From Pseudodesulfovibrio alkaliphilus (lineage in GTDB: Bacteria > Desulfobacterota > Desulfovibrionia > Desulfovibrionales > Desulfovibrionaceae), in NCBI RefSeq assembly GCF_009729555.1, contig NZ_WODC01000001.1, positions 620,001 to 684,000 on the forward strand: 64,000 nucleotides of DNA, in the 5' to 3' direction. The notes below the pieces were generated by a model that was not told where the DNA came from, did no database searches, and saw only the letters and a list, made by a program, of their open reading frames with translations. Within the stretch, counting starts at the first letter, position 1, and each line of letters starts with the position of its first letter. A program made the position numbers and the translations under genes. This document shows, piece by piece, positions 6,141 to 64,000 of this stretch.

Positions 6141-6161
6141 GGCTTTCCATTGTGCGCCCTG

Positions 6162-6776
6162 TCATCCGGCAACATGAAAAACGTGCTCAAGGGGGGCGGC
6201 TCCCTTGCCGCCGCCCGGAAGCCTGCGTTTGCCTCGGGAGTCCCGCCAGACCACATCAAGCGCCAGATCGAAGGCGTGCCGCCTCGCCAGCAGCGGAGCC
6301 AGACTGTCGTAGGCCAGGGCCACCTCGGCCTGATCCCGGAAATCCGCCTCGTCCCAGCGGAAGTGCATTGCCCCCTCCCGTCTGGCCCAGAACACGGCGA
6401 GCATGTCTTTGAGCTTGTAGTCTTCCATCAGTCGTTGCGGGTGTAAAGTCCTATTTTTCGCCGCCAGCATGGAAAGCGGCACAGGCTCCCCGCCGTGGAA
6501 GACCTCAAGGCCGAAGCGGTTGTCGTGCATGGCCACTCCCTGTGCCCGATACACCTCGCGTACCGGATGCCCCAGAGTGTGGGCCACCTCGGCCATCTTG
6601 CGCCTGGCGTCGCGCCCCAGGGCCATGTCCCGGACAATGACGTTCCACTTGGCCGAGCCATAGGTTTTGATGGCGGCCTTGACCGCCTCCCGACTCAGAT
6701 GCAGGGCGCAAACGCTGACAAACGTGCCGAAGAGGACGACCTCAAGCCGCCTGCCCGCCCCGCGCCCGCCGATCAC
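6162..6776 (-). CDS. Conserved protein of unknown function in the TPR operon
   Basis: A 204-residue protein starting at GTG 6776, whose start overlaps the TGA of the upstream TPR gene (GTGA), so the two are probably translationally coupled. An N-terminal hydrophobic stretch (about 11-27, VVLFGTFVSVCALHLSR) could be a weak signal or membrane segment. The rest is charged and soluble, with no motif I can name. Its position between two copies of the same TPR family suggests it works with them. Confidence 0.7.
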   Translation of the reverse strand: MIGGRGAGRRLEVVLFGTFVSVCALHLSREAVKAAIKTYGSAKWNVIVRDMALGRDARRKMAEVAHTLGHPVREVYRAQGVAMHDNRFGLEVFHGGEPVPLSMLAAKNRTLHPQRLMEDYKLKDMLAVFWARREGAMHFRWDEADFRDQAEVALAYDSLAPLLARRHAFDLALDVVWRDSRGKRRLPGGGKGAAPLEHVFHVAG

Positions 6777-7783
6777 GAGCCCCTCTCCAGATCCCGGTCA
6801 AGATCTTTCATCAGGGCTGTGGCGGCCAGCCGGGAGTCCACCCCTTCCGTCGCGAGCCCCAAGGGAGTTTCGACACCTGGATCGTCCTCCCCGACCAGAC
6901 CGGCTGCGCGGCGGGCCACTTCTCCCGGCACCGGAGGTTTGCCAAAGCGGGTGCGCAGACTCTCGCTGCCAGCCAGGGCCACGGCCACCCGGCAAAGATT
7001 CAGGGCAGGATCGTGGTCGGGCTTGAGGGAGAGCGCCCGGGCCGAAAACTCAACGCTGTGCTCCCAGTCGTTCTTTTCATAAAAGGCCCGTGCCAGATTG
7101 TAGTGCAGGTTCTCATCCGCATCGGTCAGCTCCACGGCCCGCGAGTAGTACTGCACCGCCTCATCGAAAAGCCCTGCCTTGCGCAGCTCGATGCCGAACT
7201 CGTTGAAGAGGTGCTTGTGCTCCTCGGAAAAGGCCGCCCGCATGGCCAGCAACTGCTCGAACACCGTGCGCGAATTGCGCCTGTCGCCACGGCCCAGATA
7301 GACCAGACCCAGACCGAAGATGGCCCGCACGTTGGTTTCGTCCACGTCCAACGCCTTGGCGTACTCCATCTCGGCAGAGAGCGGCTCGCCGCCTTCGCGG
7401 TGTCGGTCCGCCTTGGCAATGGTCCGGGTCAGGGCGCGCATGGCAGGCTCCACATGAGTGTTGTGGATCTCGACCTCGGGAGTGTAATCGGCCAGCAGCA
7501 CCTCCCGGCCTATGCACTTCTCTTCGCCCACGGGAACGAACTGGGGGTTGATCTTGCGTACGCCGAACTCGTCGGCCTGACGCTGGCAGACGTACCACAA
7601 AAGTTTGCTGCGCTGTTTTTTTGCCGTGGTGCCGGTGCCCACCTTGATCTCGGTCACGGTGGAGAAGACGCAGCGCAGCGGCTCGTCCGGGTTGTCGAGC
7701 CCGGTGCAGCCGCGCCTGCCATCAGGGACGCGGTTGTCCGCGTCGGCATGTGTGCGCGCATCCGCCATGATCTTTTTTTGCAT
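6773..7783 (-). CDS. TPR-repeat protein, paralogue A of a triplicated family
   Basis: A 336-residue member of the same family as the genes at 4003-5037 and 5079-6140. The N-terminal block is recognisable but more diverged (LRCVFST, LWYVCQ, RKINPQFVP). The TPR region includes [29 protein letters not shown] and ENLHYNLARAFYEKN, and the tail has FGKPPVPGEVARR. It is the first gene of the operon. The ATG at 7783 has GAGGG immediately against it, which is too close for a good ribosome binding site; an in-frame ATG at 7768 is an alternative start five residues later. Function unknown. Confidence 0.83.
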   Translation of the reverse strand: MQKKIMADARTHADADNRVPDGRRGCTGLDNPDEPLRCVFSTVTEIKVGTGTTAKKQRSKLLWYVCQRQADEFGVRKINPQFVPVGEEKCIGREVLLADYTPEVEIHNTHVEPAMRALTRTIAKADRHREGGEPLSAEMEYAKALDVDETNVRAIFGLGLVYLGRGDRRNSRTVFEQLLAMRAAFSEEHKHLFNEFGIELRKAGLFDEAVQYYSRAVELTDADENLHYNLARAFYEKNDWEHSVEFSARALSLKPDHDPALNLCRVAVALAGSESLRTRFGKPPVPGEVARRAAGLVGEDDPGVETPLGLATEGVDSRLAATALMKDLDRDLERGS

Positions 7784-8081
7784 CCCTCGTCCATGGTGGC
7801 GTATTCATGAGAGATATAAAGCGCCCTGCGAGAAAAAGGCTTCCTGCATCCGCCCTTTGAAGTCTAGCCCAAACAATCGTTTCAGGCAATGCGAACCGGG
7901 CTGGAATCGCCGTGAGGTTTGTTTTTGACGGAAAGCTGGACATGGGCGCCACAGACATTATCTGATGGCCACGGCAAACACGGCCCGGCGTTGCCAGCCG
8001 GATTGTTTTCAGCTATGCAAACCTTCCCTCGGGACGATCCGGCAAGGCATTCCGGGCAAAAATCAGACATGGGAGCATGCC

Positions 8082-8324
8082 ATGCCCATTTTCGAATATC
8101 TTTGCGACGACTGCGGCACCGAGTTTGAAGAACTCGTCTTTGACAGGGAAGAGTGTCCTCCCTGCCCCAAATGCGCCTCGGCCAGGACCAGCAAGCTCAT
8201 GAGCGCCGTGCGCTCGCGTACGGGCGGAACCGGCCCGGACGCGGGCGGCGACACCCCGGCTCCGGCCGCATCCTCCAGCGGCTGCGCAGGCTGCTCGGGC
8301 GGAAACTGCTCAAGCTGCCACTGA
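8082..8324 (+). CDS. FmdB-type zinc-ribbon regulatory protein
   Basis: An 80-residue protein beginning MPIFEYLCDDCG, the hallmark of the FmdB/CxxC_CxxC_SSSS zinc-ribbon family. The ribbon is formed by CDDC (8-11) and CPKC (about 29-32). The C-terminus is Gly/Ser/Cys-rich and ends with CAGCSGGNCSSCH, which may add a second metal site. The family was named for a putative regulator of formamidase, but most members have no tested role. The ATG at 8082 is chosen because family members start exactly here and GGGAGC precedes it. The gene is 75 bp upstream of hemC. Confidence 0.88.
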   Translation: MPIFEYLCDDCGTEFEELVFDREECPPCPKCASARTSKLMSAVRSRTGGTGPDAGGDTPAPAASSSGCAGCSGGNCSSCH

Positions 8325-8399
8325 CCGGCGAACTTTTTTCATAACCCGACACAGCGGCCCGTCTCGGGCTTCACCACACCCAAAAAGGCTCAACTCCGC

Positions 8400-9332
8400 A
8401 TGAAACAACTGACCATCGCCACCCGGGGCAGCGCCCTGGCCCTCTGGCAGGCCAACCACATCAAGGCGCTGCTTGAGGCCGCCCACCCCGGTCTGACCGT
8501 GGACCTGCTCAAGATCAAGACCAAGGGAGACAAGATCCTCGACGTGCCGCTGGCCAAGGTGGGCGGCAAGGGACTCTTCGTCAAGGAGATAGAGGAAGCG
8601 CTGCTGGACAACCGCGCCGATCTGGCCGTGCATTCCATGAAGGACGTGCCAACCGAGCTTCCCGACGGGCTCGAGATCGGCGTGATCCCCGAACGCGAGG
8701 CGGCCACGGACTCGCTGCTCTCCGTCGATTACGACGGGCTGGCCGGGCTGCCCCAGGGCGCCCTGGTGGGCACGTCGAGCCTTCGCCGCCAGTCGCAGCT
8801 TGCCACCTTGCGGCCGGACCTGCGCATCGAGTCCCTGCGCGGCAACCTCGACACACGGGTGAAGAAACTGCTGGACGGCCAGTTCGATGCCATCGTGGTG
8901 GCCACGGCCGGACTCAACCGCCTCGGCCTCTCCGCGCCCAGGCAGGAGATTCTGGGGCCGCCGGATTTTCTGCCCGCCGTGGCCCAGGGCGCCCTGGGCA
9001 TAGAGTACCGCTCTGACAACGCCGAGGTGGCAGCCATGCTCGCCTTCCTCGACCACGCACCCACCCGCAGGCAGGTGCTGGCCGAACGCGGCTTTCTCAC
9101 CGGGCTGGACGGCGGCTGCCAGGTGCCCATCGCGGCCTGGTCGCGGCTTGAGGGCGACCGCGTCCACCTGACCGGCTTTGTGGCCGATGTGGACGGCTCG
9201 CGCCCCATCCGCCTGACCGCCGAAGGAATGGCGGACCATGCCTGGGACGTGGGCATGGATCTGGCGGCCAAGGTGCTTGCGGCAGGCGGCAAGGTTATCC
9301 TCGACGAAGTGTACGCCCGCCAGGGCGACTGA
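8400..9332 (+). CDS. hemC: Hydroxymethylbilane synthase (porphobilinogen deaminase)
   Basis: A 310-residue cytoplasmic enzyme that polymerises four porphobilinogens into hydroxymethylbilane for siroheme, heme and cobalamin. The N-terminal [13 protein letters not shown], the [12 protein letters not shown] block and the arginine-rich substrate site ([11 protein letters not shown]) are present. The cysteine carrying the dipyrromethane cofactor is Cys240 in LDGGCQVP. Length is normal for the family. Nearby corrinoid genes (cobT at 10 kb, cobD-cobQ at 55 kb) are consistent with a tetrapyrrole-rich metabolism. Confidence 0.97.
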
Positions 9333-9436
9333 TGCACACCGCCCCGGCTAAACACGGCCCCTCTGGAATGCTATGCAAAAAAAACAGGCAATAAGAGTGG
9401 TTGGCACCCAATCGACCAACGGAGAAACGAATTTCC

Positions 9437-9463
9437 TAAAGTTCCACCGATATGGGCCGATAA
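9437..9463 (+). promoter_or_regulatory. Sigma-28 (FliA) promoter, near-perfect consensus
   Basis: TAAAGTTC at 9437-9444, an 11-bp spacer and GCCGATAA at 9456-9463. The classical flagellar sigma-28 consensus is TAAAGTTT-N11-GCCGATAA, so this matches 15 of 16 positions with exact spacing. It lies 47 bp before the ATG of the 65-residue gene at 9511, which it presumably drives. Confidence 0.85.
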
Positions 9464-9510
9464 GAACTGCAAGAGTTCTTTTCAGCACCCCATGCAAGGA
9501 GGTTCGAATC

Positions 9511-9708
9511 ATGGATATCGGTGGACTCGGAGTACAGGGAGCAAGTTTCGCGGATCAGGTCAAAGACATCCGCAAGGTGAGACTGCAAAGACAGGTCATG
9601 GAGAACCCGGAGCTGGCCCGCGAGCTGGTCAAGGTCGAAGCCACAGGCACATACAACGCCAAGGGCGATGTCATCCAGGCGGTGTCCAGTGATCTTGGAG
9701 AGGCATAA
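9511..9708 (+). CDS. Small protein of unknown function under a sigma-28 promoter
   Basis: A 65-residue soluble protein starting MDIGGLGVQGASF, with a charged helical middle (VKDIRKVRLQRQVMENPELARELVK) and no Cys. The ATG at 9511 has an excellent AAGGAGG ribosome binding site at 9496-9502 and a sigma-28 promoter at 9437. The promoter implies late flagellar or chemotaxis expression, but no flagellar gene is adjacent, and I recognise no domain. Small size and helical charge would suit a regulator or chaperone; this is inference only. Confidence 0.75.
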   Translation: MDIGGLGVQGASFADQVKDIRKVRLQRQVMENPELARELVKVEATGTYNAKGDVIQAVSSDLGEA

Positions 9709-9726
9709 TCTGGCCGCAGATTGCGG

Positions 9727-9780
9727 CAGCCAAAAAAGATAGGCCGGGCGACCAATCGCCCGGCCTATCTTTTTTGGCTG
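9727..9780. terminator. Bidirectional rho-independent terminator
   Basis: A perfect inverted repeat of about 25 bp per arm (CAGCC, A6, GATAGGCCGGGCGA and the complement) with a 3-4 base loop, so each strand reads a GC-rich stem followed by T6. It separates the sigma-28 gene from the convergent cobT. Confidence 0.9.
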
Positions 9781-9799
9781 CCCGAAAGACGCCGGAAGG

Positions 9800-10897
9800 C
9801 TACTCGCCCGCCCCTGCCACACCGGCATCGGCAAAGGTCGCCATCCTGGTGTACATGTCGGCCGCGCTGCGCACCAGATACATGGCGCAAGCCGCGCCCG
9901 TCCCCTCGCCCAGGCGAAACCCCAAATCAAGCAGCGGCCAAAGGCCGAGAGCCTTGACCACAGCCCCATGCCCCGGTTCGGCCGAAGCATGGCTGATGAC
10001 GCAATAGTCGGCCACGGCCGGGCAGAGCTTCCAGGCCGCCACATAGGCCGCGGTGGAGATGAACCCGTCCACGCAGACCATCTGGCGGTTTCTGGCCCCG
10101 CCGAGAATCAGCCCGGCCAGGGTGGCGATCTCAAGACCACCCAAGGCTGCCAGCACGGCCAGAGGCTCGCCGGACTCCACGGCCTGCCGGTTGGCCGCAA
10201 GCCCGCGCCGGATCACTGCGGCCTTGCGGGCCATGCCCTCGGCGTCGAGCCCGGTGCCCGGCCCCGTGACAGCCACGGGATCGAGACCGAGGAATGCGCA
10301 ATAGAGAGCCGTGGACGGCGTGGTGTTGGAGATACCCATGTCGCCAGTGCCCAGTACGCGGACACCGTCGGCCAGGGCGCTATCGGCCAGGGACACCCCG
10401 AGCAGGAGGGCGCGAAGGCATTGCTCGCGGGTCATGGCCGGCCCCTTGGCCAGATTGGCCGTGCCCGGCGCGATCTTGGCCTGAATCAGGGCGGGGTGGT
10501 CATCGTATCCGCCGCCGCAGGAGCCCGCGTCCACCACATAGAGCTGCGCCCCGGCAGTGGCGGCCAGCACGTTGATACCCGCTCCGCCGCGCAGGAAGTT
10601 GAGAACCATCTGGCGCGTGACCTCCTGAGGGAACAGGCTCACTCCCTCCTCGTTGACGCCGTGGTCCCCGGCCACGGTATAGATACGCATGGGATCGGCG
10701 CAGGGCGGCTGCCCCCCCTGGATCAAGAAGAGCTGCAAGGCCAGGTCTTCAAGGCGGCCGAGGCTCCCCCGGGGCTTGGTCAGATTGTCGAGGTGGGCCT
10801 GGCCGCGGGGGGCCTGGGCACGATCCACCGGATGGATGGCGGCCAGCACCGCCTCAAGTTCGCAGGACAGGGTCTCGGGGGATGTGGTATGGGACAT
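9800..10897 (-). CDS. cobT: Nicotinate-nucleotide-dimethylbenzimidazole phosphoribosyltransferase
   Basis: A 365-residue CobT that makes alpha-ribazole phosphate, the lower-ligand nucleotide of cobalamin. The family blocks NLTKPRGSLGRLEDLALQL, AGDHGVNEEGVS, TGDMGISNTTPS and GFRLGEGTGAACA are present; the Glu in GEGTGA is the catalytic base in characterised enzymes. The start is set at ATG 10897 (MSHTTSPETL). The frame stays open further upstream but then overlaps the divergent gene at 11057, and the extra sequence is unlike CobT. The gene stands alone, with no other cob gene beside it. Confidence 0.95.
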   Translation of the reverse strand: MSHTTSPETLSCELEAVLAAIHPVDRAQAPRGQAHLDNLTKPRGSLGRLEDLALQLFLIQGGQPPCADPMRIYTVAGDHGVNEEGVSLFPQEVTRQMVLNFLRGGAGINVLAATAGAQLYVVDAGSCGGGYDDHPALIQAKIAPGTANLAKGPAMTREQCLRALLLGVSLADSALADGVRVLGTGDMGISNTTPSTALYCAFLGLDPVAVTGPGTGLDAEGMARKAAVIRRGLAANRQAVESGEPLAVLAALGGLEIATLAGLILGGARNRQMVCVDGFISTAAYVAAWKLCPAVADYCVISHASAEPGHGAVVKALGLWPLLDLGFRLGEGTGAACAMYLVRSAADMYTRMATFADAGVAGAGE

Positions 10898-11056
10898 GAA
10901 TTCCTCGCAGCGCAGTGTGTTTCGTTGGTTGGGGTGGATTACACCCTGGCCTTGCGCCTGTAAACCGTCCAGACGCCGCCCTTGTCTGGTCCGGGGATTC
11001 CGTGCTAGGGTCCGCCTACGGCCTTTTGCCGGAAAATCAATTGATTCCGGGGCGTC

Positions 11057-11890
11057 ATGAATAAAGAACTCTGCATCGTTCACGCCAACTGCCAGGGAGA
11101 GCCCCTCATCGAACGGCTCATGACCAGCCCGCAGTTCGCGGCCCGCTACCACTGCGAGTTGTACACCAACTACATCCGCCAGCCCGTCCCGCCCGAAAGG
11201 CTGGGCCGGTGCGCCCTCTTCCTCTATCAGCACCTCGGCCCCGAGTGGAACGAACTGGCTTCGGCCGCTCTGCTCGCGGCCCTGCCCGCCTCGGCCCAAC
11301 ACCTGTGCATACCGAACATGTTTCACCTGGGATACTGGCCTCTGTGGAGCGGCCGCCCCGGTTTCGACTACCGCTGCGACCACCTGGACGAGTTCCTCGC
11401 CCTCGGACGCTCTCCCGAGGAGACCATGATCCTTTTCCTGCGTTCCGATCCGGCTGCCAGATACGACCTGCCCGGCCTGATCGCCCGTAGCGTCGCCCTG
11501 GAAAGGAAAAAAGAAGAACGCACCCCGATCAAGTATCTGGACATGGTCCTGGAGCGATCACGCAGCGTCCGGCTCTTCCACACCATCAACCATCCCGGCC
11601 GGGAGCTGATGGACCACGCAGCCAGGGGCGTACTGGCTCAACTTGGGCTGGCCGCCCCCGACAAGGCGGCCCTGGCCCGGCTCGATGAACCGTTTCAGGA
11701 ATTCGAGCTGCCCATCAATCCCAAGGTGGCCCGGTTCTTCGGTTGGGACTTTGCCACGCCCGAAACCCAGTATCAGATTTACGGCAGACAGATGAACTTT
11801 GCCCGCTATGCGACCAACTACATCATGGCCGCACGGGCCGGAATCAGCGACTTCATCGGCTATCTCCAGGGGGTCCACAGTGCCATCTGA
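11057..11890 (+). CDS. WcbI-like polysaccharide biosynthesis protein
   Basis: A 277-residue soluble protein whose start, ELCIVHANCQGEPL, resembles the GNCQ-type N-terminus of the WcbI family of putative acetyltransferases in capsule biosynthesis. Later parts contain conserved-looking aromatic and histidine residues (IPNMFHLGYWP, LFHTINHPGRELM). The gene overlaps the following glycosyltransferase by 11 bp. Inference: the pair modifies a surface glycan. The WcbI assignment is from memory of the motif and is moderately sure. Confidence 0.65.
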   Translation: MNKELCIVHANCQGEPLIERLMTSPQFAARYHCELYTNYIRQPVPPERLGRCALFLYQHLGPEWNELASAALLAALPASAQHLCIPNMFHLGYWPLWSGRPGFDYRCDHLDEFLALGRSPEETMILFLRSDPAARYDLPGLIARSVALERKKEERTPIKYLDMVLERSRSVRLFHTINHPGRELMDHAARGVLAQLGLAAPDKAALARLDEPFQEFELPINPKVARFFGWDFATPETQYQIYGRQMNFARYATNYIMAARAGISDFIGYLQGVHSAI

Positions 11891-12872
11891 CGCCATCGCC
11901 TGGCTGGGCGGCTCGTATTTTCGAGACGAGTTCGCCGCCTTGGGCCACAGGGTGGTCCACATCCCCATGGCGGCCACCGAAATCCTCGACTGGAACACGC
12001 TGGTGGCCCGGACCGGGGGCGAACCCGCGGGCGTGATCTACGCCGATTGCAGCCTGCCGCCGCCCCTGGTGGGCATGGAGCGTTTCCCCTGCCCCACGGT
12101 CTTCTATGCCGTGGATTCGCACATCCACAGCTGGTACCCCATGTACGCCCAGGGATTCGATCTGGTGGCCGTGAGTCTGCGCGACCACCTGCCGCGCTTT
12201 CGCCAGCGTCTCGGCGAGGGGCGGATCATCTGGCTGCCCCCCTTTCCCCTGGGCGGGGAGCGCCCCCCGGACCGACCGCCGGTCAAGGAGTGGGACATTC
12301 TCTTCGCGGGCAAGGTGGACCCCGAACTGACGCCCGGCCGCCACGCCCTGCTGCGCGAGATACGAGCGCGATTCCCTGGCCTAGCCGTGCGGCAGGGAAA
12401 ATTTGGCGATCTCTTCCCCAGGGCTCGCGTGGTCCTGAACATCGCAGAGGCGGGCGACCTCAACTTCCGGGTCTTCGAAGCCATGGCCTGCGGCGCGTGC
12501 CTGCTCACGCCCGAGGTGGGCCACGGCCAATCCCTGCTTTTCTCCGAAGGGGTCCACATGACCACCTACCCGCCAAACGACCCGGATCAAGTGGTGGCCC
12601 GCGCCTGCGCCCTGCTTGATGCCCCGGACGTTCGCGAGGCCATGGGCCGGGCGGCCAGCGCGGAAATCGACGCCCGGCATCGGCCGCACCACCGCGCAGC
12701 GACCCTGGCCCAGGCCCTGGACGCACTGGCACCAAACACCGTGGCCGACCGGCTGGCCAAGGCCGGGGCAATCCACGCAAAATATCTGCGGCTGGTCTAC
12801 CTGCACTGGGCCGAAGCCAGCGACGATCCGGCGCGGCGGGCCGCCTTCCTGGCCGCAGGCGCTGTTCCCTGA
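11880..12872 (+). CDS. Glycosyltransferase, GT1/CgeB-like
   Basis: A 330-residue protein with a two-domain GT-B look. The N-terminal half has hydrophobic strands ending in acidic or aromatic residues (GVIYADCSLPPPLVGME, TVFYAVDSHIHSWY). The C-terminal half has the typical nucleotide-sugar binding segment ARVVLNIAEAGDLNFRVFEAMACGACLLTPEVG, where the Glu of FEAMACG is characteristic. The GTG at 11880 lies inside the end of the upstream WcbI-like gene. Sugar donor and acceptor are unknown. Confidence 0.75.
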   Translation: MPSDAIAWLGGSYFRDEFAALGHRVVHIPMAATEILDWNTLVARTGGEPAGVIYADCSLPPPLVGMERFPCPTVFYAVDSHIHSWYPMYAQGFDLVAVSLRDHLPRFRQRLGEGRIIWLPPFPLGGERPPDRPPVKEWDILFAGKVDPELTPGRHALLREIRARFPGLAVRQGKFGDLFPRARVVLNIAEAGDLNFRVFEAMACGACLLTPEVGHGQSLLFSEGVHMTTYPPNDPDQVVARACALLDAPDVREAMGRAASAEIDARHRPHHRAATLAQALDALAPNTVADRLAKAGAIHAKYLRLVYLHWAEASDDPARRAAFLAAGAVP

Positions 12873-54958: not shown

Positions 54959-57637
54959 TCATCCGCCCGCGACGCGGAACAGGCTGGCCTGGGTGCAGCA
55001 GCCGCTGAAGCCGAGCGCCTTGTATATCTTCTCCATGCACACCGCCTCACGGACCACCCCGGCCAGGTGATCCAGAGCGTCCTCCAGATCAAAGCGCACC
55101 TGCACCGCGCCCAGGGGGGGCAGCCCCTTGTCGGTGCGCAGTTGGTCGATGAACCAGCGCCGGAACTCGTCGGCGTCGAAGAGGCCGTGCAGATAGGTGC
55201 CCCAGACCCTCCCGTCGGCACGGGAAAACCCCAGAGGCTGGCCCGCGTTGTCGCGCAGGGCCACACGCAGGGAGTCGGCCAGGGGCTTGGTCAGACCGTG
55301 GTGAATCTCGTAGCCGTGGACCGGCAGGCTTGAGCGGGAGTGGGTGCCCCAGGTGCGGGTCAGGGTCTTCTCGGGCACCAGGGTGGTCTGCACCGGCAGC
55401 AGGCCGAAGCCGTCCATGCGGGTTGTTTCGGACTCCAGCCCGTAGGGATCGTCCACCACCTCGCCGAGCATCTGAAAGCCGCCGCAGATGCCGATGATCC
55501 TGGTGCGGCCGCCCTCGGCGGCCAGGGAGCGCAGCGCCGCGGCCATGCCCGCCCCGCGCAGGGCCTTCATGTCCGGCACCGTGGACTTGGAGCCGGGAAT
55601 GATCACCGCATCGGGCGTGCCCAGCTGGTGGGCGTCGGACACCACGCGCACACGCACGTCCGGCTCGGCGTGGAGCGGATCGATGTCGTTGAAATTGGAG
55701 ATGCGCGGCAGGTCGATGACCGCGATGTCCACGCACTGGCCGGGCGGCAGCTTGCGCGCCTCGGGCCGGAAGCCCTCCTTGAAGGAGACCGAATCCTCCT
55801 CGGGCAACCCCAGGGAGTGGATGTAGGGGACGGTGCCCAGCACCGGCCTGCCCGTGTGCTCGAACATCTGGCCAAAGGCGGGTTCGAGCAGCGTCTCGTC
55901 GCCCCGGAAGCGGTTGATGAGAAATCCCTCGACCATGTCGCGCTCGGCCGGGGTAAGCAGGTGCATGGTCCCGACCATGGAGGCGAAGACGCCCCCCCGG
56001 TCGATGTCGCCCGCCAGGAGCACCCGTGCGGCGGCGTGGCGGGCCATGGCCATATTGACGATGTCGTGGTGCTTGAGGTTGACCTCGGCCGGGCTGCCCG
56101 CGCCTTCGATGACCATGATGTCGTGCTCGTTGGCCAGGGAATCGTAGGCGGCCTTGACCGCCTCCCAGGCGCGGGGCTTGTAGCGCACGTATTCGCCCAC
56201 GCTCATGTTGCCCACCGGGCGTCCCATGACGATGACCTGGGAGCCGGTGTCCGATCCGGGCTTGAGCAGCACCGGGTTCATACGCACGTCTGGCCGCTGG
56301 CGGCAGGCCATGGCCTGGGTCACTTGGGCGCGGCCCATCTCGCACCCCTCGTCGGTGACAAAGGAGTTGAGGGACATGTTCTGCGCCTTGAACGGGGCCA
56401 CGTTGTAGCCATCCTGGAGAAAGATGCGGCAGAAGGCGGCTGCCAGGACGGACTTGCCCGCGTTGGAGCTGGTGCCCTGCAGCATCAGGGCCGGGGTGCG
56501 CTTGGTGCGCCGGACCACCGGGCCGCGCCCGGTGCCGCTGACCGCCTCCATGGCCCGGATCAGGCGCTCGTTGTCCTCGCCGCTGCGCACGGCCACACGA
56601 AACCAGTTGTTGTCCAGCCCCTCGTAGTTGCCGCACAGCCGGATGGCGATGCGGTGCTCCATGAGCAGCCTGTCCCGCAGGGGCGCCGCGTCCTGGCCTA
56701 CGCGTTCGACCCGGCAGAGCAGATAATTGGCCGAGCCGGGGCACACCCGGATGCCCGGCACATGGCGCAGGCCCGAGGCCAGGCTCTCGCGCAGCAGCGC
56801 TGTCTGCTCGCGAGTGCGGGCCGCATAGGCCGTATCGCGCAGACAACGCGCCCCCACCTTCTGGGCCAGGGTGTTCACCGACCATGCGGGCATGGCCTGC
56901 TTGAGGCGCAGGATCACCTCGGGATCGGCAAAGGCCAGTCCGAGCCGGATGCCCGGAATGGCGAAAAACTTGGTCATGGAGATGACGGTGACGACGTTGG
57001 ACGGCCTGTCGCGTACCAGACGGTCGGCTCCCTCGGGCAGGAACTCGGCAAAGGACTCGTCCACCACGAAGCGCGAGCGGGGGAACATGGCCGCCACCTC
57101 GCGCAGGTCGGCCGGAGAGAAAAGCGCACCCGTCGGGTTGTTGGGATTGCACAAAAAGACCAGCGAGGGCGTGGTCAACAACCGCCCCATGGCCGGAAAG
57201 TTGACGGTCCGGTCGTCCCCGAGCGGGACCTCGAGCACCTTGAGCCGGTGCGCCTTGCAGGCCCGCGCATAATCCACGTAGGTGGGCGAAGGAATGACCG
57301 CCTGTCCGAAACCGCCCAGGGAGGCGATGGCGAAAAGCAGCTCGGACGCTCCGTTGCCCGCCAGGACCTGGGTGGGCCAGACCTTGTATGCCTCGGCCGC
57401 GGCCATGAGCAGGTCATGACTGTCCGGGTCCGGGTAGGCGTCAACGGACTGGAGCGCCTGCCCCACCACCTGACCCAGCCACGGGGGCGGGCCCAGCGGA
57501 TTGACGTTGGCGGAAAAGTCGAGAATCTCCTCGGCACGGCACCCGGCCTGCTCGGCCAGACGGCGCAGATTGCCCCCATGGGCGAACCGCTGTTCGTCCA
57601 ACACATCGGGAATTCCCGCCAGAACGCGCTGCTTCAC
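54959..57637 (-). CDS. cobD-cobQ: Fused threonine-phosphate decarboxylase (CobD) and cobyric acid synthase (CobQ)
   Basis: An 892-residue bifunctional cobalamin enzyme. Residues about 1-370 are a PLP-dependent fold-type I decarboxylase like CobD ([55 protein letters not shown] with the PLP Lys). Residues about 385-892 are CobQ: the P-loop-like [19 protein letters not shown], the DIDRGGVFA motif and a class I glutamine amidotransferase domain with nucleophile Cys in [10 protein letters not shown] and HGYEIHHG. CobD makes aminopropanol phosphate; CobQ amidates adenosyl-cobyrinate a,c-diamide. The start GTG 57637 has GGAGG. One continuous frame, no sign of frameshift. Confidence 0.9.
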
Positions 57638-57903
57638 CGTGCCTCCACCGTCCGGGTCGAAGCGGGGGGCCACTCCGCCCGAAGTCTAGATTTTATCGAG
57701 ACTTCACGCCGTTCTACGCTGAAAGCGCTTCCGAGACAAGGGTGAAATGTTCGTGGCCCACGGTCCGCGAATCGCCGAAGCGGGAATATTTCCCCTCCCG
57801 TCCGCACGTGACAAGGCCCCTGCCGGGGGCGGTGGCAGGGGTCTTGTGCGGGGTGAGGCGGCCCGGTCGGGCACGGGCTGACCGGGCCGGTGGTGCTACA
57901 GGG
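57638..57903. other. Intergenic region between catalase and cobD-cobQ
   Basis: Contains two hairpins, 57811-57847 and 57860-57886. No cobalamin riboswitch B12-box was recognised. Confidence 0.5.
57811..57847 (-). terminator. Hairpin after catalase
   Basis: Stem ACAAGGCCCCTGCC/GGCAGGGGTCTTGT with one G-T pair; a second hairpin with arms GGCCCGGTC/GACCGGGCC at 57860-57886 lies closer to the gene. Lacks a strong T run. Confidence 0.5.
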
Positions 57904-59421
57904 TTATTTGACGGGCGTTGCGGCCACCCGCTCCTCCTGGCTCATGGCGGTAAGCTTCCTGACCTTGGCCAGGTCAAGGCCGAGCCCCTTGGCCACACGG
58001 CTTCCGTAGTCCTCGTCGGCCTTGTAGAACAGGGCGCACTGACGCAGCTGGATCGGCTTTGGCACCTGGCCCAGGCTGCCCAGAATGTTGCTGACCAGAT
58101 TGGCCCGGTCCTGCTCGGTCATGACGCGGCGATACAGGTTGCCCGGCTGCACGAAATCGTCGTTCTCATGGGCGAACTCATGGCGGCCTCCGTGACCCTC
58201 CAGGGGGATGGGCGGCTCGACAAAGGAGGTGTCCGGGGCCGGAGCGCCGAAGCTGTTGGGCCAGTAGTTGGGCCCGCCTCCGCCGTTGTTGTCCGTACGC
58301 ATGGCGCCGTCGCGCTGGTAGCTCTTCTCGGGCGCGTTCTTGGGCTGGTTGACCGGAATCAGATGATAGTTGGGTCCAAGCCGGTGCAGATGGGTGTCGT
58401 GGTAGGAGAACAGGCGCCCCTGGAGCATCTTGTCTGGCGAGACGCCGATGCCGGGCACCAAGTTGCTCGGGTTGAAGGCGGCCTGCTCCACCTCGGCAAA
58501 ATAGTTCTCCGGGTTGCGGTTAAGCACCAGTCTGCCGACCTTGACGGGCGGCACTTCCTTGTGGGGCCAGACCTTGGTGATGTCGAAGATGTCCCAGCCG
58601 AACTTCTCGGCCTGCCTGGGCGTGAGAATCTGCATCTCCAGGGTCCATGAGGGGTATTCGCCGCGGGCGATGGCATCGTGAAGATCGCGGGTGGCATGGT
58701 CCGGGTCCTTGCCGCACATCCCGGCCGCCTCGGGGCCGGTCAGGTTCCTGATCCCCTGATCGGTCTTGAAATGGTACTGGACCCAGAAATAGTCGCCCTT
58801 GGCATTATACCATTTATAGGTGTGGCTGGAGTAGCCGTTCATGTTCCGATACGTGGCCGGGGTGCCGCGATCCGAAAAGAGAATGGTCACCTGATGGATG
58901 GACTCGGGCGTCAGCGACCAGAAATCCCAGGCCATGGTCGGACTTTTCAGGTTGGTGACCGGGTCGCGCTTCTGGGTGTGGATGAAATCCGGGAACTTGA
59001 GGGGATCGCGGATGAAGAAGACCGGGGTGTTGTTGCCGGTCATGTCGTAGTTGCCTTCCTCGGTGTAGAACTTGATGGCAAAGCCGCGTGGATCGCGCTC
59101 TGCGTCGGCACTGCCCTTCTCGCCGCCCACGGTGGAAAAGCGGGCGAACACGTCGGTTTTCTTGCCCACCTTGGAGAGGAAGGCGGCCCGGGTGTACTTG
59201 GTCACATCGGCCGTGACCTCGAAATAGCCGTAGGCGCCCGCCCCCTTGGCATGGACCACCCGCTCCGGGATGCGTTCGCGGTCGAAATGGGAGAGTTTTT
59301 CCAGCAGATGAACGTCCTGCATCAGCACCGGCCCGCGAGGCCCGGCAGTGGCAGAGTTCAGGTCATTGCCCACCGGATGTCCAAAGGCAGTGGTCATCGT
59401 CTCTTTTTTCTTCTTTGTCAT
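57904..59421 (-). CDS. katA: Heme catalase (clade 3 type)
   Basis: A 505-residue monofunctional catalase. The distal His is in [12 protein letters not shown], the Asn in [16 protein letters not shown], and the heme-ligand region is [15 protein letters not shown], matching the F-S-Y-x-D-T-x-x-x-R-L-G motif. It disproportionates hydrogen peroxide in the cytoplasm. ATG 59421 has GGAGG. An inverted repeat 94-116 bp upstream may bind a peroxide or iron regulator. Catalase is common in oxygen-tolerant sulfate reducers. Confidence 0.96.
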
Positions 59422-59514: not shown

Positions 59515-59537
59515 AAAATAGTAATGGCTACTATTTT
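59515..59537. promoter_or_regulatory. AT-rich perfect inverted repeat before katA
   Basis: AAAATAGTA-ATGGC-TACTATTTT: a perfect 9-bp dyad with a 5-bp spacer, 94-116 bp upstream of katA. It resembles a binding site for a Fur/PerR-type regulator, but matches no exact consensus known to me. Confidence 0.45.
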
Positions 59538-59688: not shown

Positions 59689-59705
59689 TTGAAACCCATT
59701 TTCAT
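59689..59705. promoter_or_regulatory. Candidate Fur box before the ferrosome-like operon
   Basis: TTGAAACCCATTTTCAT matches the recalled Desulfovibrio Fur-box WTGAAAATNATTTTCAW with two mismatches (AT replaced by CC). It lies about 137 bp before the ATPase start. Confidence 0.5.
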
Positions 59706-59841
59706 TATCACCGATAAGCATGGATGGTACATGTGGAGGCGGTCGGCCCCGCAGCAATACCCCGACGAAACCAACCGACCGATGCGCGGCAACAAATGAG
59801 ACCCGCTTTCATAATCAGAATTTGCCGCTTCAGGTGAACGT

Positions 59842-62070
59842 ATGTATATGGATTCAAGCATGAAAGACATCATCTCCACCCGACACGCCATCACGGGGCG
59901 GGTCCGCTTCCGCGTCCGTCCCATGCTCCGCGACCACGCCCTGGCCAGACGCATCGGAACGGGACTCGAGGCACTTCCCTTCGTGGAAACGGTCCGGCCC
60001 AACGTGGCCTGCGCCAGCCTCGTGGTCCGATACCAACCGGGCGAAGCGCATCTGGCAGCCATTGAGGACGCCCTGTATCGGCTGGCGTCCGCCCGGGACA
60101 CCGACACACTTGCCTGCATCGCGCACGATGCCCCTGATTGCGCCACCCCGCTGTGCCAGTGCCGGGCCTGCGATGCCACGCGCACGGGCTGCAACCCGGT
60201 CAAACCCGCCCTGCGCCGATTTGTGGCCATCAGCGCTGTGCTGGGAGGAGTGCTCGTCTCTGGCCCGCTTTTGGGCATCGGCCTGGCCCAGACAGCCTTC
60301 AGTCCCGTGGGCATCGCGGCTGCGGCTTTTTCCCTGCCCCTGTTCAAGCAGGCGTGGCAGCAACTGCGCGACCGCCGCTTCACCCTGGAGATGTTTCTCG
60401 GGGCGAGCTGCATGGCCGCCGTGTTTGCGGGAGAAGCCCTGACCGCCTTTGAAATCCTGTGGATCACCGCAGGCGCGGAACTGCTCAAGGCATGGATAAC
60501 CGAACGCTCCCGCAAATCCATCAGCCGCATCCTCGAAGTCTCCTCCCACCATACCTTCATCCTGGTGGACGGGGTGGAGATGGAAAAGGAAGTGGCCGAC
60601 CTGCGTCCGGGAGATGTGGTGGTCCTGCACACCAGCGAGAAAGTGTGCGTGGATGGCGTGATCGTGGACGGCGAGGCGCTCATGGACGAGGCATCCATCA
60701 CCGGCCGGGCCGATTTCGTGCCCAAACGGGCGGGCGACGAGGTGCTGGCCGGAACCTTCGTGCGCCAGGGGGTCATCTATGTCCGGGCGCAACGGGTGGG
60801 CGACCGCACCTATCTGGCCCGCATATTGAAAATGGTGGAGGACTCCCTTGAGAACCGGGCACCCATCGAGGGCGTGGCCGACCGGCTGGCCTCCACCCTG
60901 GTCAAGCTCGGGTTCGCGGCCACGGCCGGGACCTGGCTGCTGACCGGCTCCCTGTGGCGGGCATTCACTGTCATGCTGGTCATGGCCTGCCCCTGCGCCA
61001 CGGTGCTGGCGGCCTCCACGGCCGTGAGCGCCGCCCTGAGCGCTGCGGCCAGAAGGAACATCCTGATCAAGGGCGGCCGTTACCTTGAAGCAGTGGGCAC
61101 CACCGACACCGTGTGTTTTGACAAGACCGGCACCCTGACCACCTCCGAGCCGGTCCTGGCCCGGATCGTTCCCCTAAGCGGCAGCGACACGGAGCGTCTC
61201 CTGGCCCGCGCCGTGTCGGTTGAGATGCACAATCATCATCCGCTGGCCCAGGCCATCAAGCAGGAGGCGGATCGGCGCGGGGTCGCCCCCGAGCCGCACA
61301 CGGTCTGCGAATATTTCCTTGGCATGGGTATGCGCGCCGAGGTCGGCGGCAGCGAAATCCTGGTGGGCAACGCCCGGCTCATGGAACGCCACGGGGTAGA
61401 CGTGGCCCCGGCCGGACGCAGGGCAGCGCCGCTGCGCCGCCAAGGGCGCACGGTGCTCTATGTGGCCGAAGACAAAGCCCTGCTCGGCCTGCTCGCCTTT
61501 GACAACCTCACCCGGCCTGAAAGCCGTCAGGTGGTCGACAGGCTGCGCCAGGGCGGCATCCGCGAGGTGGTCCTGATTACCGGCGACGAGCCCAACACCG
61601 CCAAAGAGCTGGCCCGCAAGCTCGGTATCGCCACGGTCCACGCATCGGTCATGCCCGAAGACAAGGCGCATATCGTGGATGCGATGCAGACCCGCGGGGC
61701 ATCGGTGATCATGGTCGGCGACGGCGTCAACGACGCCCTGGCCCTGACCCGCGCCGATGTGGGCGTGGCCATGGGGGCGGGCGGATCGGAGGTGGCCATT
61801 GAGGCTGCTGACATTGCCCTGGTTACCGACGACCTGGGCGGGCTGGTCTATGTCCAGTCCCTGAGCCAGGCCACCATGAAGGTGGTCCATCAAAACTTCT
61901 GGATTGCCACCGGCTCCAATGTGGCCGGAGTGATCCTGGGCGCAAGCGGACTGCTCTCGCCGGTCATGGCCGGGCTGCTGCACATCGTCCACTCGCTGGG
62001 CGTCCTGGCGAACTCGTCGCGCCTGTTGCGCCACCAACCCCCGGCTCTGGCGGCCGGAACCGAGGACTAA
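59842..62070 (+). CDS. P1B-type metal-transporting ATPase (FezB-like candidate)
   Basis: A 742-residue P-type ATPase. The N-terminus (about 10-90) is an HMA-like domain without CxxC but with arginine-rich GRVRFRVRP; then Cys-rich CQCRACDATRTGC (about 108-120), several TMs, the metal-site motif CPC at 383-385, phosphorylation Asp427 in DKTGT, an HP-type HHP in the N domain, and GDGVND at 626-631. The enzyme would pump a transition metal across a membrane. Ferrosome loci encode a P1B-6 ATPase (FezB); the operon here, with HMA-like and hydrophobic small proteins, looks similar, so iron loading of a compartment is my inference. The ATG at 59842 has AGGTGA; 59848 and 59863 are alternatives. Confidence 0.85.
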   Translation: MYMDSSMKDIISTRHAITGRVRFRVRPMLRDHALARRIGTGLEALPFVETVRPNVACASLVVRYQPGEAHLAAIEDALYRLASARDTDTLACIAHDAPDCATPLCQCRACDATRTGCNPVKPALRRFVAISAVLGGVLVSGPLLGIGLAQTAFSPVGIAAAAFSLPLFKQAWQQLRDRRFTLEMFLGASCMAAVFAGEALTAFEILWITAGAELLKAWITERSRKSISRILEVSSHHTFILVDGVEMEKEVADLRPGDVVVLHTSEKVCVDGVIVDGEALMDEASITGRADFVPKRAGDEVLAGTFVRQGVIYVRAQRVGDRTYLARILKMVEDSLENRAPIEGVADRLASTLVKLGFAATAGTWLLTGSLWRAFTVMLVMACPCATVLAASTAVSAALSAAARRNILIKGGRYLEAVGTTDTVCFDKTGTLTTSEPVLARIVPLSGSDTERLLARAVSVEMHNHHPLAQAIKQEADRRGVAPEPHTVCEYFLGMGMRAEVGGSEILVGNARLMERHGVDVAPAGRRAAPLRRQGRTVLYVAEDKALLGLLAFDNLTRPESRQVVDRLRQGGIREVVLITGDEPNTAKELARKLGIATVHASVMPEDKAHIVDAMQTRGASVIMVGDGVNDALALTRADVGVAMGAGGSEVAIEAADIALVTDDLGGLVYVQSLSQATMKVVHQNFWIATGSNVAGVILGASGLLSPVMAGLLHIVHSLGVLANSSRLLRHQPPALAAGTED

Positions 62071-62072
62071 CC

Positions 62073-62372
62073 GTGAACCTTTCGACCCTGATGACCCTGC
62101 GCGACCACCTGAAGATCCAGCACCATGTGCCCGGACGCATCCGCATCAAGTTCACCCCGGCCCTGCTGGCCGATCCACGGGCCATGGCCCTCAGGGACAA
62201 GACCACTGATCTTCCCGCCTTTGTGCGCGAGGTGCGGGTCAATGTCTTCACCCGCGACATCGTCATTGAATACGATCCCAAGGCCGTGGTGCCGGAAGCG
62301 CTGCACGAGGCGCTGACCACCGCGGACCAAGAGAGATTGAGCGAACTGGCCGCACAGTTCGAGACCGTCTGA
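62073..62372 (+). CDS. HMA-like small protein (FezC-like candidate)
   Basis: A 99-residue protein that looks like an HMA-2 ferredoxin-like domain without CxxC: VPGRIRIKF near residues 19-27 parallels GRVRFRV in the ATPase, and AFVREVRVNVFTRDIVIEYDPKAV gives the second beta-alpha-beta unit. The GTG at 62073 is 3 bases after the ATPase stop, with GAGGA upstream, so the two are coupled. Metal chaperone or assembly role in the operon is inference; a true FezC in other loci has a heavy-metal-associated domain. Confidence 0.75.
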   Translation: MNLSTLMTLRDHLKIQHHVPGRIRIKFTPALLADPRAMALRDKTTDLPAFVREVRVNVFTRDIVIEYDPKAVVPEALHEALTTADQERLSELAAQFETV

Positions 62373-62404
62373 CACGACAGAAAGCAACCCGAAGGAGGAG
62401 CGAC

Positions 62405-62959
62405 ATGGATTATTCGAATCAGGCGCAGTACGGCCCGGCAGCGGGCGCTGCCGAACCCCAGGGAGCCCAGCCGCAGCCCGGCGGACTCTACCAGTTTCAA
62501 CCCGGCGTGGGCTTCGTGCCCGTGCAGGGACAGCCCGCCCAAGCCCAGGCCGCGGGCATGGAAGGCCAGGCCGCGGGCGCTCAGGCCGCCGGGCAGAGCA
62601 TGGGTACGCAGGGCATGGGAAGCCAGACCATGGGCGGATCGGCCGCCTTCAGCCAAGGCATGTATGGCCAGGGCATGCCCGAGGGCGCACAACCCAAGTT
62701 CGATCAGAACAAGCTCGGCCAGATGTACGGCGTCATGACCGATGTCATGAACGGCGAGGCCGAGCCGACCAAGCTGCTGGGCCTGCTCGACGGCACGGGC
62801 GGCGAATTTTGGAAGGGGGCCCTGGTGGGCGCGGCCGCCGTGGTCCTGCTCAACAACGACGCCGTCAAGGGTGCGCTGGCCGGTCTGGCCGCCTCGGCCG
62901 GGTCCATGTTCCGCGAGGCCGACCCCGAGGGCGAACAGGTTACCGTGGGCTCCAAGTAG
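62405..62959 (+). CDS. Low-complexity protein with one membrane segment
   Basis: A 184-residue protein: residues 1-100 are Gln/Gly/Ala/Met-rich (repeats such as AGMEGQAAGAQAAGQSMG) and likely disordered; residues about 138-165 (KGALVGAAAVVLLNNDAVKGALAGLAAS) form a hydrophobic, Gly/Ala-rich segment. The same segment design recurs in the 125-residue gene at 63548. ATG 62405 has GAAGGAGGAG. It may anchor to or shape an internal membrane. No family I can name. Confidence 0.75.
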   Translation: MDYSNQAQYGPAAGAAEPQGAQPQPGGLYQFQPGVGFVPVQGQPAQAQAAGMEGQAAGAQAAGQSMGTQGMGSQTMGGSAAFSQGMYGQGMPEGAQPKFDQNKLGQMYGVMTDVMNGEAEPTKLLGLLDGTGGEFWKGALVGAAAVVLLNNDAVKGALAGLAASAGSMFREADPEGEQVTVGSK

Positions 62960-62986
62960 CCCGACACACTTGCCAAGGAGCAAAAC

Positions 62987-63526
62987 ATGACCAAGCAATA
63001 TACTACTGCGGCCAGGGCTGTGCCCCTGAGTGGCGCCGTTCTGGGCGCGGCCGTATTCGGCGCCGTGATCGGCGCCACGGCAGCCGCGGCCCGAGGCATT
63101 CGACAGGTGAAAAACGGCGAGGCCACAAAACAGGACGTGGCCATGGATGTGGCCCGCGAGAGCGGCTCCACCGCCGTGGCCGCAGGAGCGGGCGTGGCCG
63201 TGGCCTCGGCCCTCGGCCTTGGCCCGATCCTCTCCGCCGTGGGCGTGGTGGCCGTGGCCGTGGGCACCAAGTACGCCATCGATTCCGTTCTCAGCCCCTC
63301 CCGCCCCAAACCCGCAGCCAAAGCCGCGGTCCCTGCCGCGTCAGCGACCGAAAAGACGGCACCCAAAAAAACCGCAGCAATCAAAACCCCGAGCTCCGCA
63401 GCCAAAAAAAGCGCGGCTCCCCAAAAGACCGTCAAAAAGGCTGCGCCCAAAAAAGCTGCGCCCAAAAAAGCGGCCACGACCACGAAACAGACCGCCAAAA
63501 CCACCGAAACCCCAGACAAGGCATAA
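62987..63526 (+). CDS. Gly/Ala-rich membrane protein with histone-like lysine-rich tail
   Basis: A 179-residue protein with two hydrophobic Gly/Ala-rich parts (about 13-35, LSGAVLGAAVFGAVIGATAAAA, and 62-92, TAVAAGAGVAVASALGLGPILSAVGVVAVAVG) joined by a charged linker. The C-terminal ~75 residues are Lys/Ala/Pro-rich (KKAAPKKAAPKKAAT), similar in composition to histone H1-like tails. ATG 62987 has AAGGAGC. Operon position suggests a structural or membrane-bending role; the basic tail could bind phosphate, polyphosphate or nucleic acid. Confidence 0.75.
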   Translation: MTKQYTTAARAVPLSGAVLGAAVFGAVIGATAAAARGIRQVKNGEATKQDVAMDVARESGSTAVAAGAGVAVASALGLGPILSAVGVVAVAVGTKYAIDSVLSPSRPKPAAKAAVPAASATEKTAPKKTAAIKTPSSAAKKSAAPQKTVKKAAPKKAAPKKAATTTKQTAKTTETPDKA

Positions 63527-63547
63527 GCGCCTCAAGAGGAACAGAGC

Positions 63548-63925
63548 ATGAGCGATCACAGCACACAGTGGCCCCAGCCCGGCGCCTCCTCTGCCGAGGG
63601 CGCGTACTCCAGGGACCCGCAGAACCCCACCCACTACTTCCAGGACGCCAACCAGTTCGGCGCCGCCATGCAGTCGGTCCCGGCCTCGCGGCCTGCCGTT
63701 GCCCAGGCTCCCTCTCCTGTGGCCTCCTGGTTCGCCTTCACCAACGCCGACTACCTCAAGGGACTGGCCCTGGGTGTGGGCGCGGCCCTGGTGGTGACGA
63801 ACCCCACGGTGCAAAAGGCCGTGGTCTCCGGCGCGGTCAAGGCATGGGCGGCCATCCAGGGCGGCGTTGAAGAACTCAAGGAACAGGTCCAGGACGCAAA
63901 GGCCGAACTGAGCCAAAAGGACTAG
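63548..63925 (+). CDS. Small protein with hydrophobic segment like the 62405 gene
   Basis: A 125-residue protein: residues 1-60 are polar and low complexity; about 69-100 (YLKGLALGVGAALVVTNPTVQKAVVSGAVKAW) is the hydrophobic segment; the C-terminus is a charged helix (VEELKEQVQDAKAELSQKD). The pattern (W/L)-K-G-x-x-x-G-x-x-A-x-V-V-x-x-N-x-x-V matches the protein at 62405, so the two are probably paralogues. ATG 63548 has AAGAGGAA. Coupled to the next gene by a 3-bp gap. Confidence 0.75.
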   Translation: MSDHSTQWPQPGASSAEGAYSRDPQNPTHYFQDANQFGAAMQSVPASRPAVAQAPSPVASWFAFTNADYLKGLALGVGAALVVTNPTVQKAVVSGAVKAWAAIQGGVEELKEQVQDAKAELSQKD

Positions 63926-63928
63926 ACC

Positions 63929-64000
63929 ATGTCAGGCAAAAACGCCACGGGCCTGTCCCGTCCCACGGGAATGTCCACCACCACCAAGCGGACCCTGGCC
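63929..64000 (+). CDS. Partial gene cut by the window end
   Basis: ATG 63929, 3 bases after the previous stop, with AAAAGGACT as ribosome binding site, opens a frame to the window edge (24 codons, MSGKNATGLSRPTGMSTTTK...). The rest lies outside. It continues the ferrosome-like operon; no function can be inferred. Confidence 0.6.
   Translation, partial: MSGKNATGLSRPTGMSTTTKRTLA

What the first reader, a model, noticed from the sequence alone, without database searches (positions are those of the whole stretch)
59842..64000. Ferrosome-like (fez) operon at the window end
Seen: a P1B-type ATPase with a CPC metal motif, an HMA-like small protein 3 bp after it, then three small proteins with hydrophobic Gly/Ala segments, all tightly packed, preceded by a Fur-like box. 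Known: ferrosomes are lipid-bounded iron compartments of Desulfovibrio magneticus and others, built by fez operons encoding a P1B-6 ATPase (FezB) and small associated proteins. Inference: this locus may build such a compartment, with extra low-complexity and lysine-rich proteins that may be lineage-specific. The operon continues past the window.
Basis: partly seen in the sequence, partly recalled or inferred. Interest (0 to 1): 0.88.

Follow-up and report, generated by a model that had tools for sequence, protein, structure and literature searches.

The report
Expanded ferrosome-type iron-storage operon
The genes at the end of this window begin a larger operon that probably builds a small membrane-bound iron store inside the cell, an enlarged version of the known ferrosome gene set with two or three metal pumps and a protein related to one from magnetic bacteria.

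Summary
In detail: a CPC P1B-ATPase (59842-62070), an HMA_2-like protein 2 nt later and three small Gly/Ala-rich membrane proteins lie in one tight run. The operon continues past the window (L009) with a FezC-like cytochrome, an SCA-motif ATPase inside the FezB clade, a triple-FeoA protein and an ACA-motif ATPase duplicated from the second. The CPC ATPase forms its own clade, away from E. coli CopA and ZntA, but has a Cys-rich linker, so its metal is open. One small protein matches the magnetosome MamC model below its cut-off, as do 29 of 29 homologues. Partial versions of the cassette occur in Vibrio, Arcobacter and others. In 247 class genomes, 38 carry this type, 103 a compact FezB locus like that of probable D. 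magneticus RS-1, and one both, suggesting alternatives. Reading: a ferrosome-type iron compartment, new variant. Granules, pumped metal and Fur control are untested; the two founding ferrosome papers were not readable here.

The parts
59691..59709 (.). Fur-box-like site, 151 nt before the first gene (14 of 19)
   Evidence: not shown to be functional
59842..62070 (+). A1: P1B-ATPase; HMA_2-like N-terminal domain without CxxC, then a Cys-rich linker (residues 92-117, with a CxCxxC run); CPC in TM4, HxxH in TM6; own clade, not FezB
62073..62372 (+). HMA_2-like small protein
   Evidence: 29.9 bits, cut-off 30; homologues in other FezB loci
62405..62959 (+). GQ protein: Gly/Gln/Met-rich repeats plus one Gly/Ala membrane segment; FWxG core invariant in the 23 aligned of 26 gathered (L070, L082, L087 left out)
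   Evidence: no convincing Pfam family
62987..63526 (+). MamC-like membrane protein with Lys/Ala-rich tail
63548..63925 (+). sml: small membrane protein with a conserved charged tail (GVEELKEQVQDAKAE)
   Evidence: weak DUF5132 or YtxH matches in 5 and 4 of 31
63929..64000 (+). Start of a FezC-like gene (79 aa, cut by the window end; whole as L009:5930-6169); two invariant His
   Evidence: Beyond the window, in L009: FezB-like ATPase A2 6173-8320; triple FeoA 8304-9035; ATPase A3 9032-11146; convergent FezA-like 11248-11505 and HMA-like 11530-11955

Best explanation
The locus is an expanded ferrosome-type (fez) operon. Shown by sequence: three related P1B pumps (CPC, SCA, ACA motifs), a FezC-like di-His membrane protein, a triple-FeoA protein, a MamC-like membrane protein, two other small Gly/Ala membrane proteins, HMA_2-like proteins and a convergent, possibly FezA-like gene. 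Inferred mechanism: under iron limitation, relieved through a Fur-like site, the operon is expressed; the small membrane proteins gather and shape membrane into vesicles; the FezB-like pump A2, perhaps with A3, pumps Fe(II) into the vesicle with ATP; the FezC-like cytochrome moves electrons across the membrane to set the iron redox state; FeoA domains regulate the pumps from the cytosol; the CPC pump A1 supplies a second transport step (another metal, a second iron step, or release); the MamC-like and repeat proteins organise the stored mineral. Everything in this mechanism is inference from kinship; none of it was measured.
For: A2 lies in one clade with the FezB of the probable D. magneticus genome, Bacillota, Azospirillum, Rhodobacter and others (SH-aLRT 95; 99 for the part with Pseudomonadota and Campylobacterota). 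SCA in TM4 in 24 of 27 window-type A2 (others GCA, SCT, SCV), HN in TM6 in the 5 of 5 window-type A2 aligned. FezC-like protein: both His invariant in 22 of 22. FeoA family E 1.8e-20 with three stretches (limit E 1). Order A1, GQ, sml, A2 kept on one strand in 17 of 20 loci chosen by FezC; 2 of the other 3 are contig-end fragments. Related cassettes without A1 or triple FeoA in Vibrio, Arcobacter, Cereibacter, Hahella and others, some with a single FeoA-like frame nearby. Near-exclusive with compact FezB loci: 1 of 247 genomes has both, about 16 expected. Fur-like site in 12 of 23 upstreams. PMC11334425 (passages): FezC binds heme b.
Against: No granules, iron content or expression data. The FezC-like protein is below the Pfam cut-off (17.7 against 26.7 bits), and only 9 of 22 members match DUF4405 at E 0.01. 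The FezA-like gene is convergent, and its DUF6110 match is chance level (E 0.15). The Fur-like site is weak; 11 of 23 upstreams lack one at 14 of 19. A Cys-rich linker in A1 (CxC or CxxC in 19 of 23) could point to a softer metal than iron. Exclusivity is not corrected for phylogeny. The founding papers (Grant 2022, Pi 2023) could not be read, so what they say of such clusters is unknown to me. Metal specificity rests on kinship alone.
Confidence: 0.75

Rival explanations
1. A metal-efflux platform at the cell membrane, like mycobacterial CtpC with PacL scaffolds: the pumps expel excess metal and the small proteins cluster them in the plasma membrane; no organelle forms.
For: A1 is in a superclade (98, branching inside it open) with Mycobacteriaceae and Rhodococcus pumps, the latter beside a DUF1490 gene, and has CPC. 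PMC9374683 (passages) ties DUF6110 proteins to P1B6 pumps and suggests membrane platforms; it calls CtpC P1B6-like.
Against: A1 has HxxH, not HN, in TM6, 23 of 23. No DUF1490 match among the ten proteins scanned. FezB, FezC and FeoA kin point to iron, and the type replaces compact fez loci.
Confidence: 0.15
2. Two functions in one operon: A2, FezC and the small proteins form a ferrosome while A1 is an exporter or loader for another metal (Zn, Cu, Mn). This is compatible with the core of the best explanation and overlaps it.
For: A1 was not called in the compact and non-phylum FezB loci examined, and P0004 found only 27-38% matches, best 7.8e-95, in 12 of 12 genomes or plasmid records with other FezB loci. 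CPC is typical of P1B1 and P1B2 (PMC9374683 passage), which are Cu and Zn pumps (recalled). A Cys-rich linker after the HMA-like domain, with CxC or CxxC in 19 of 23 A1 and in none of the three FezB-type rows checked (CxxC only), suits a soft metal.
Against: A1 co-occurs with window-type A2 in 36 of 38 genomes, none without A2, and is the first gene in 16 of 17 complete loci. Not in the CopA or ZntA clades.
Confidence: 0.35
3. Ordinary copper or zinc exporter operon.
For: CPC motif; Cys-rich linker in A1; generic ATPase-IB_hvy family match.
Against: The HMA-like domain itself has no CxxC, A1 is outside the CopA and ZntA clades, FezC and FeoA neighbours.
Confidence: 0.04

Closest known systems
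Compact fez locus of Desulfovibrio magneticus RS-1 (G168, L089; identity inferred from replicon sizes 5248049, 58704 and 8867, recalled)
   Same: FezB-clade ATPase, FezC-like protein, small FezA-like membrane protein; same taxonomic family
   Different: Three such genes; FezC fused to an HMA-like part; no CPC ATPase, and no MamC-like, GQ or triple-FeoA gene called in L089
Multi-gene FezB loci of Azospirillum, Vibrio, Arcobacter, Cereibacter, Hahella (R. palustris RPA2333-2338 is reported as six fez genes in PMC12016538, passage; not fetched)
   Same: Parts of HMA, GQ, MamC-like, sml, FezB, sometimes FezC, in the same or similar order
   Different: One FezB-type ATPase; no A1, triple FeoA or A3 in the stretches examined
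CtpC and PacL1 zinc efflux platform (PMC9374683, passages)
   Same: CPC P1B pump with a small membrane partner; P1B6-like kinship
   Different: HN in CtpC against HxxH in A1; DUF1490 not found here; Actinobacteria
Magnetosome protein MamC (NCBIfam NF038051)
   Same: 29 of 29 homologues match the model at E 0.01 or better, best 1.7e-16
   Different: Below the curated cut-off of 100: 43.4 bits for the window protein, 62.1 at best in 247 genomes; the other operon genes were not compared with magnetosome genes

Membership tests
Ferrosome (fez) gene cluster | P1B-6 ATPase FezB (FezB clade, HN in TM6) | tested here: met
   A2, starting 172 bp beyond the window end (L009:6173-8320):
   Own clade, SH-aLRT 100, 12 of 12 rows
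Ferrosome (fez) gene cluster | FezC, DUF4405-like di-His cytochrome | tested here: met
   Two His invariant in 22 of 22; its profile hits the L089 FezC at 36 bits; Pfam match below cut-off. Heme binding not testable here
Ferrosome (fez) gene cluster | FezA, small DUF6110-like membrane protein | tested here: inconclusive
   Convergent gene L009:11248-11505: its profile hits the genes before FezB in five Bacillota loci at 18.7-27.3 bits and in L089 at 10.3; DUF6110 E 0.15
Ferrosome (fez) gene cluster | Fur control | tested here: inconclusive
   14 of 19 site; 12 of 23 homologous upstreams at 14 or more
Ferrosome (fez) gene cluster | Iron-rich membrane-bound granules after iron re-feeding, lost on deletion | not testable with these tools
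   needs microscopy
CtpC/PacL efflux platform | CPC with HN in TM6, DUF1490 partner | tested here: not met
   HxxH in 23 of 23; no DUF1490 match in the ten proteins scanned
CopA or ZntA exporters | Clusters with E. coli CopA or ZntA | tested here: not met
   a Cys-rich linker is nevertheless present
MamC (magnetosome) | Score over the NF038051 cut-off | tested here: not met
   43.4 bits for the window protein; 0 of 247 genomes over the cut-off

The most novel reading that the evidence does not exclude
A two- or three-pump iron organelle intermediate between ferrosomes and magnetosomes: a CPC/HxxH pump with a Cys-rich linker (a P1B group of its own) and FezB-type pumps load one compartment, a three-FeoA protein gates them, and MamC-like proteins plus repeat proteins control the mineral, as MamC does in magnetosomes. 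MamC-like proteins would then be older than magnetosomes and shared by both organelles.
Probability: 0.3. Interest if true: 0.85.

Novelty: new variant of a known kind. Interest (0 to 1): 0.62.

Why it matters
Ferrosomes are among the few lipid-bounded organelles of bacteria. This locus shows a conserved, larger gene set that seems to stand in for the compact one, with a pump group of unknown metal, FeoA domains attached to an iron store, and a sequence link to a magnetosome mineral protein. It makes three questions testable by deletion: what the second pump moves, what FeoA does outside Feo transport, and whether MamC-like proteins shape minerals outside magnetosomes.

Tried and rejected
A1 as FezB: rejected by the tree. 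MamC match as mere Ala/Gly composition: disfavoured, since the model rings in 0 of 14 control genomes, and of 38 of 247 genomes hit, 36 hit at 1e-7 or better, all 36 carrying window-type A2; the two weak hits are G028 and G175. Promoter-like sites were no more than shuffles give (1 against 1.0), terminator-like sites about one sd more (8 against 5.7, sd 2.4) and none placed at an operon end. Structure prediction was not used. Papers: Grant 2022 and Pi 2023 are not held; searches for ferrosome with FeoA (1 paper, on another topic by its listing), fez gene cluster or operon or fezB (8 papers, 7 listed), and MamC outside magnetotactic bacteria (13 papers) listed none whose title or abstract start describes such an operon (listings only). 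This does not show that it is unpublished.
Full report
Observation. The five genes exist as described. The window is G000:C1:620001-684000, so I fetched the neighbouring DNA as L009 (L009 position = window position minus 57999). The run continues: FezC-like 5930-6169, ATPase A2 6173-8320, triple-FeoA protein 8304-9035, ATPase A3 9032-11146, and convergent on the other strand a FezA-like (11248-11505) and an HMA-like gene (11530-11955).

Families. A1: HMA_2 (34.4 bits, over cut-off) plus the P-type ATPase domains. The 99 aa protein: HMA_2 at 29.9 bits, cut-off 30. FezC-like: DUF4405 at E 0.005, below cut-off. The 243 aa protein: FeoA, 73.2 bits, three matched stretches at the limit used, E 1. 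The 179 aa protein: NCBIfam MamC, 3.1e-11, 43.4 bits, cut-off 100. The GQ and sml proteins have no convincing family.

Tree. 66 P1B ATPases, picked by hand from the 154 sequences gathered (count), quick IQ-TREE, SH-aLRT support alone, rooted on the distant KdpB. A1: 12 of 12 rows in one clade (100), inside a superclade (98) with CtpC-like pumps of Mycobacteriaceae and Rhodococcus and with the FezB side; how these three join is open. The 12 window-type A2, 5 A3 and 12 other FezB rows form a clade at 95. Within it A2 plus A3 form a clade at 97, next to the FezB of Pseudomonadota and Campylobacterota. A3 (5 rows, 100) is nested in A2, so it looks like a duplicate. E. coli CopA and ZntA fall elsewhere. 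Motifs: A1 CPC and HxxH in 23 of 23; window-type A2 SCA in 24 of 27; A3 ACA in 7 of 9, the others VCS and ACS. A1 also has, after its HMA-like domain, a Cys-rich linker: CxC or CxxC before the first membrane segments in 19 of 23; in the window protein Cys at 92, 100, 105, 107, 110 and 117. The window A2 and A3 and the L089 FezB have no CxxC in their first 150 residues. This speaks for a soft metal, or for a metal sensor site, in A1.

Conservation. Among 78 genomes of relatives, own included, the FezC-like protein occurs in 9 (7 in the own genus, own included), so the operon is patchy. I then looked at 20 loci picked from the FezC hits (47 of 247 class genomes and 14 of 297 phylum genomes; some genomes are in both). 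In 17 of 20, A1, GQ, sml and A2 stand in this order on one strand; MamC lies between GQ and sml in 16 and before A1 in one (L080); triple FeoA follows A2 in 14; HMA was not called in L071, L073, L074, L076, L087, nor FezC in L076, L077, L079, L082 (my simple caller drops overlapping ORFs). Two loci are contig ends (L078, L085). L088 is another kind. Because FezC chose the loci, its presence is by construction.

Outside the phylum. Plasmid and named-genome loci with a FezB-type ATPase carry parts of the same cassette by my profiles: Vibrio pTHAF190c (HMA, GQ, MamC-like, sml, FezB), Arcobacter (HMA, a weak GQ-like tail at 13 bits, MamC-like at 24, sml, FezB, FezC), Cereibacter (GQ, sml, FezB, HMA-like), Azospirillum (HMA, sml, FezB), a Hahella MAG (GQ, MamC-like, sml, FezB), Rhodobacter capsulatus (GQ, sml, FezB), a gammaproteobacterial MAG (all six, GQ weak at 16 bits). 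Five Bacillota loci show a FezA-like gene before FezB, one of them (L112) also a FeoA-like frame. Single FeoA-like frames lie within the stretches of L097, L111 and L120 too. None of these FezB loci had A1, A3 or a triple-FeoA protein in the stretch seen; a search of 12 such genomes or plasmid records with A1 gave only 27-38% matches. A triple-FeoA search of plasmids gave no match at E 0.01.

D. magneticus. G168 has contigs of 8867, 5248049 and 58704 bases, sizes that I recall for RS-1. Its locus L089 holds a FezA-like gene, FezB and a FezC with an HMA-like N-terminus. The identity is recalled, not looked up.

Exclusivity. In the same 247 class genomes: A1 (E 1e-150) in 36, MamC model at 1e-7 or better in 36, window-type A2 (652 bits or more to P0002) in 38, compact FezB (508 bits or more to L089 FezB) in 103. 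Window-type and compact together: 1 (G082), about 16 expected, Fisher p 5e-9; in the own genus 6 compact, 4 window-type, none both, of the 30 members listed (further members without a match may be unlisted). The bit limits were set by me at gaps in the listings, and phylogeny is not corrected for. Six compact loci of the own genus hold HMA, FezB, a weak sml-like gene and a weak MamC-like gene (14-31 bits), with a FezA-like gene called in 3 of 6, so even there the parts overlap.

Regulation. Fur-like 19-mers of 14 or more matches stand in 12 of 23 upstream regions, so Fur control is likely but not shown.

Literature. PMC11334425 and its preprint (passages): FezC is a heme b cytochrome, proposed to modulate iron redox in ferrosomes. 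PMC12574912 (passages): C. difficile FezA and FezB are required for ferrosomes and repressed by Fur. PMC12016538 (passages): R. palustris CGA009 makes ferrosomes from six fez genes. PMC12748827 (passages): RS-1 accumulates ferrosomes on going from low to replete iron. PMC9374683 (passages): DUF6110 proteins are typically encoded with P1B6 pumps, marked by HN in TM6.

Verdict. A ferrosome-type operon of an expanded kind, likely at 0.75. It works like a fez cluster; as membership, FezB and FezC are met by sequence, FezA and Fur are open, granules untested. Not seen in the other FezB loci that I examined are the CPC/HxxH pump clade, the A2 duplicate and the triple-FeoA protein; the MamC-like member is wider. 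Their roles I infer only.

Noticed in passing
window 57904-59421 (-) and 59515-59537: A catalase gene (by eye) lies divergent to the operon; before it sits a perfect 9-bp inverted repeat with a 5-bp spacer (AAAATAGTA-ATGGC-TACTATTTT), which looks like a peroxide or redox regulator site.
   Followed up: no
window 54959-57673 (-): One 904 aa frame reads as a CobD/HisC-like aminotransferase fused to a cobyric acid synthase (by eye, no family search).
   Followed up: no
L088:8200-9107 (G114): FezA-like and FezC-like genes stand close together, with FezB between them reduced to a 70-codon remnant, unlike its relatives.
   Followed up: partly
L090:9854-10216 (-) and L217:7824-8156: FezC-like genes with no FezB called beside them, one next to a large unidentified protein in the probable D. 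magneticus genome.
   Followed up: no
G546 contig 61 (L232-L235): A gammaproteobacterial MAG with a fez cassette has eight scattered P1B-like ATPases (27-32% to A1) on one 144-kb contig; the seven I fetched show none of the TM4 motifs of my pattern. Its fez cassette lies next to FeoB-like and FeoA-like genes (L236; FeoB by eye).
   Followed up: partly
L009:11248-11955 (-); L023, L025, L026, L081, L083, L213, L214: A convergent or separate set (HMA-like genes, second MamC-like, FezA-like) goes with the operon; in the window genome the MamC-like member of this set is missing.
   Followed up: partly
window 59842-62070 (A1, residues 92-117): Cys-rich linker after the HMA-like domain, CxC or CxxC in 19 of 23 A1 homologues; its metal is unknown.
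   Followed up: partly
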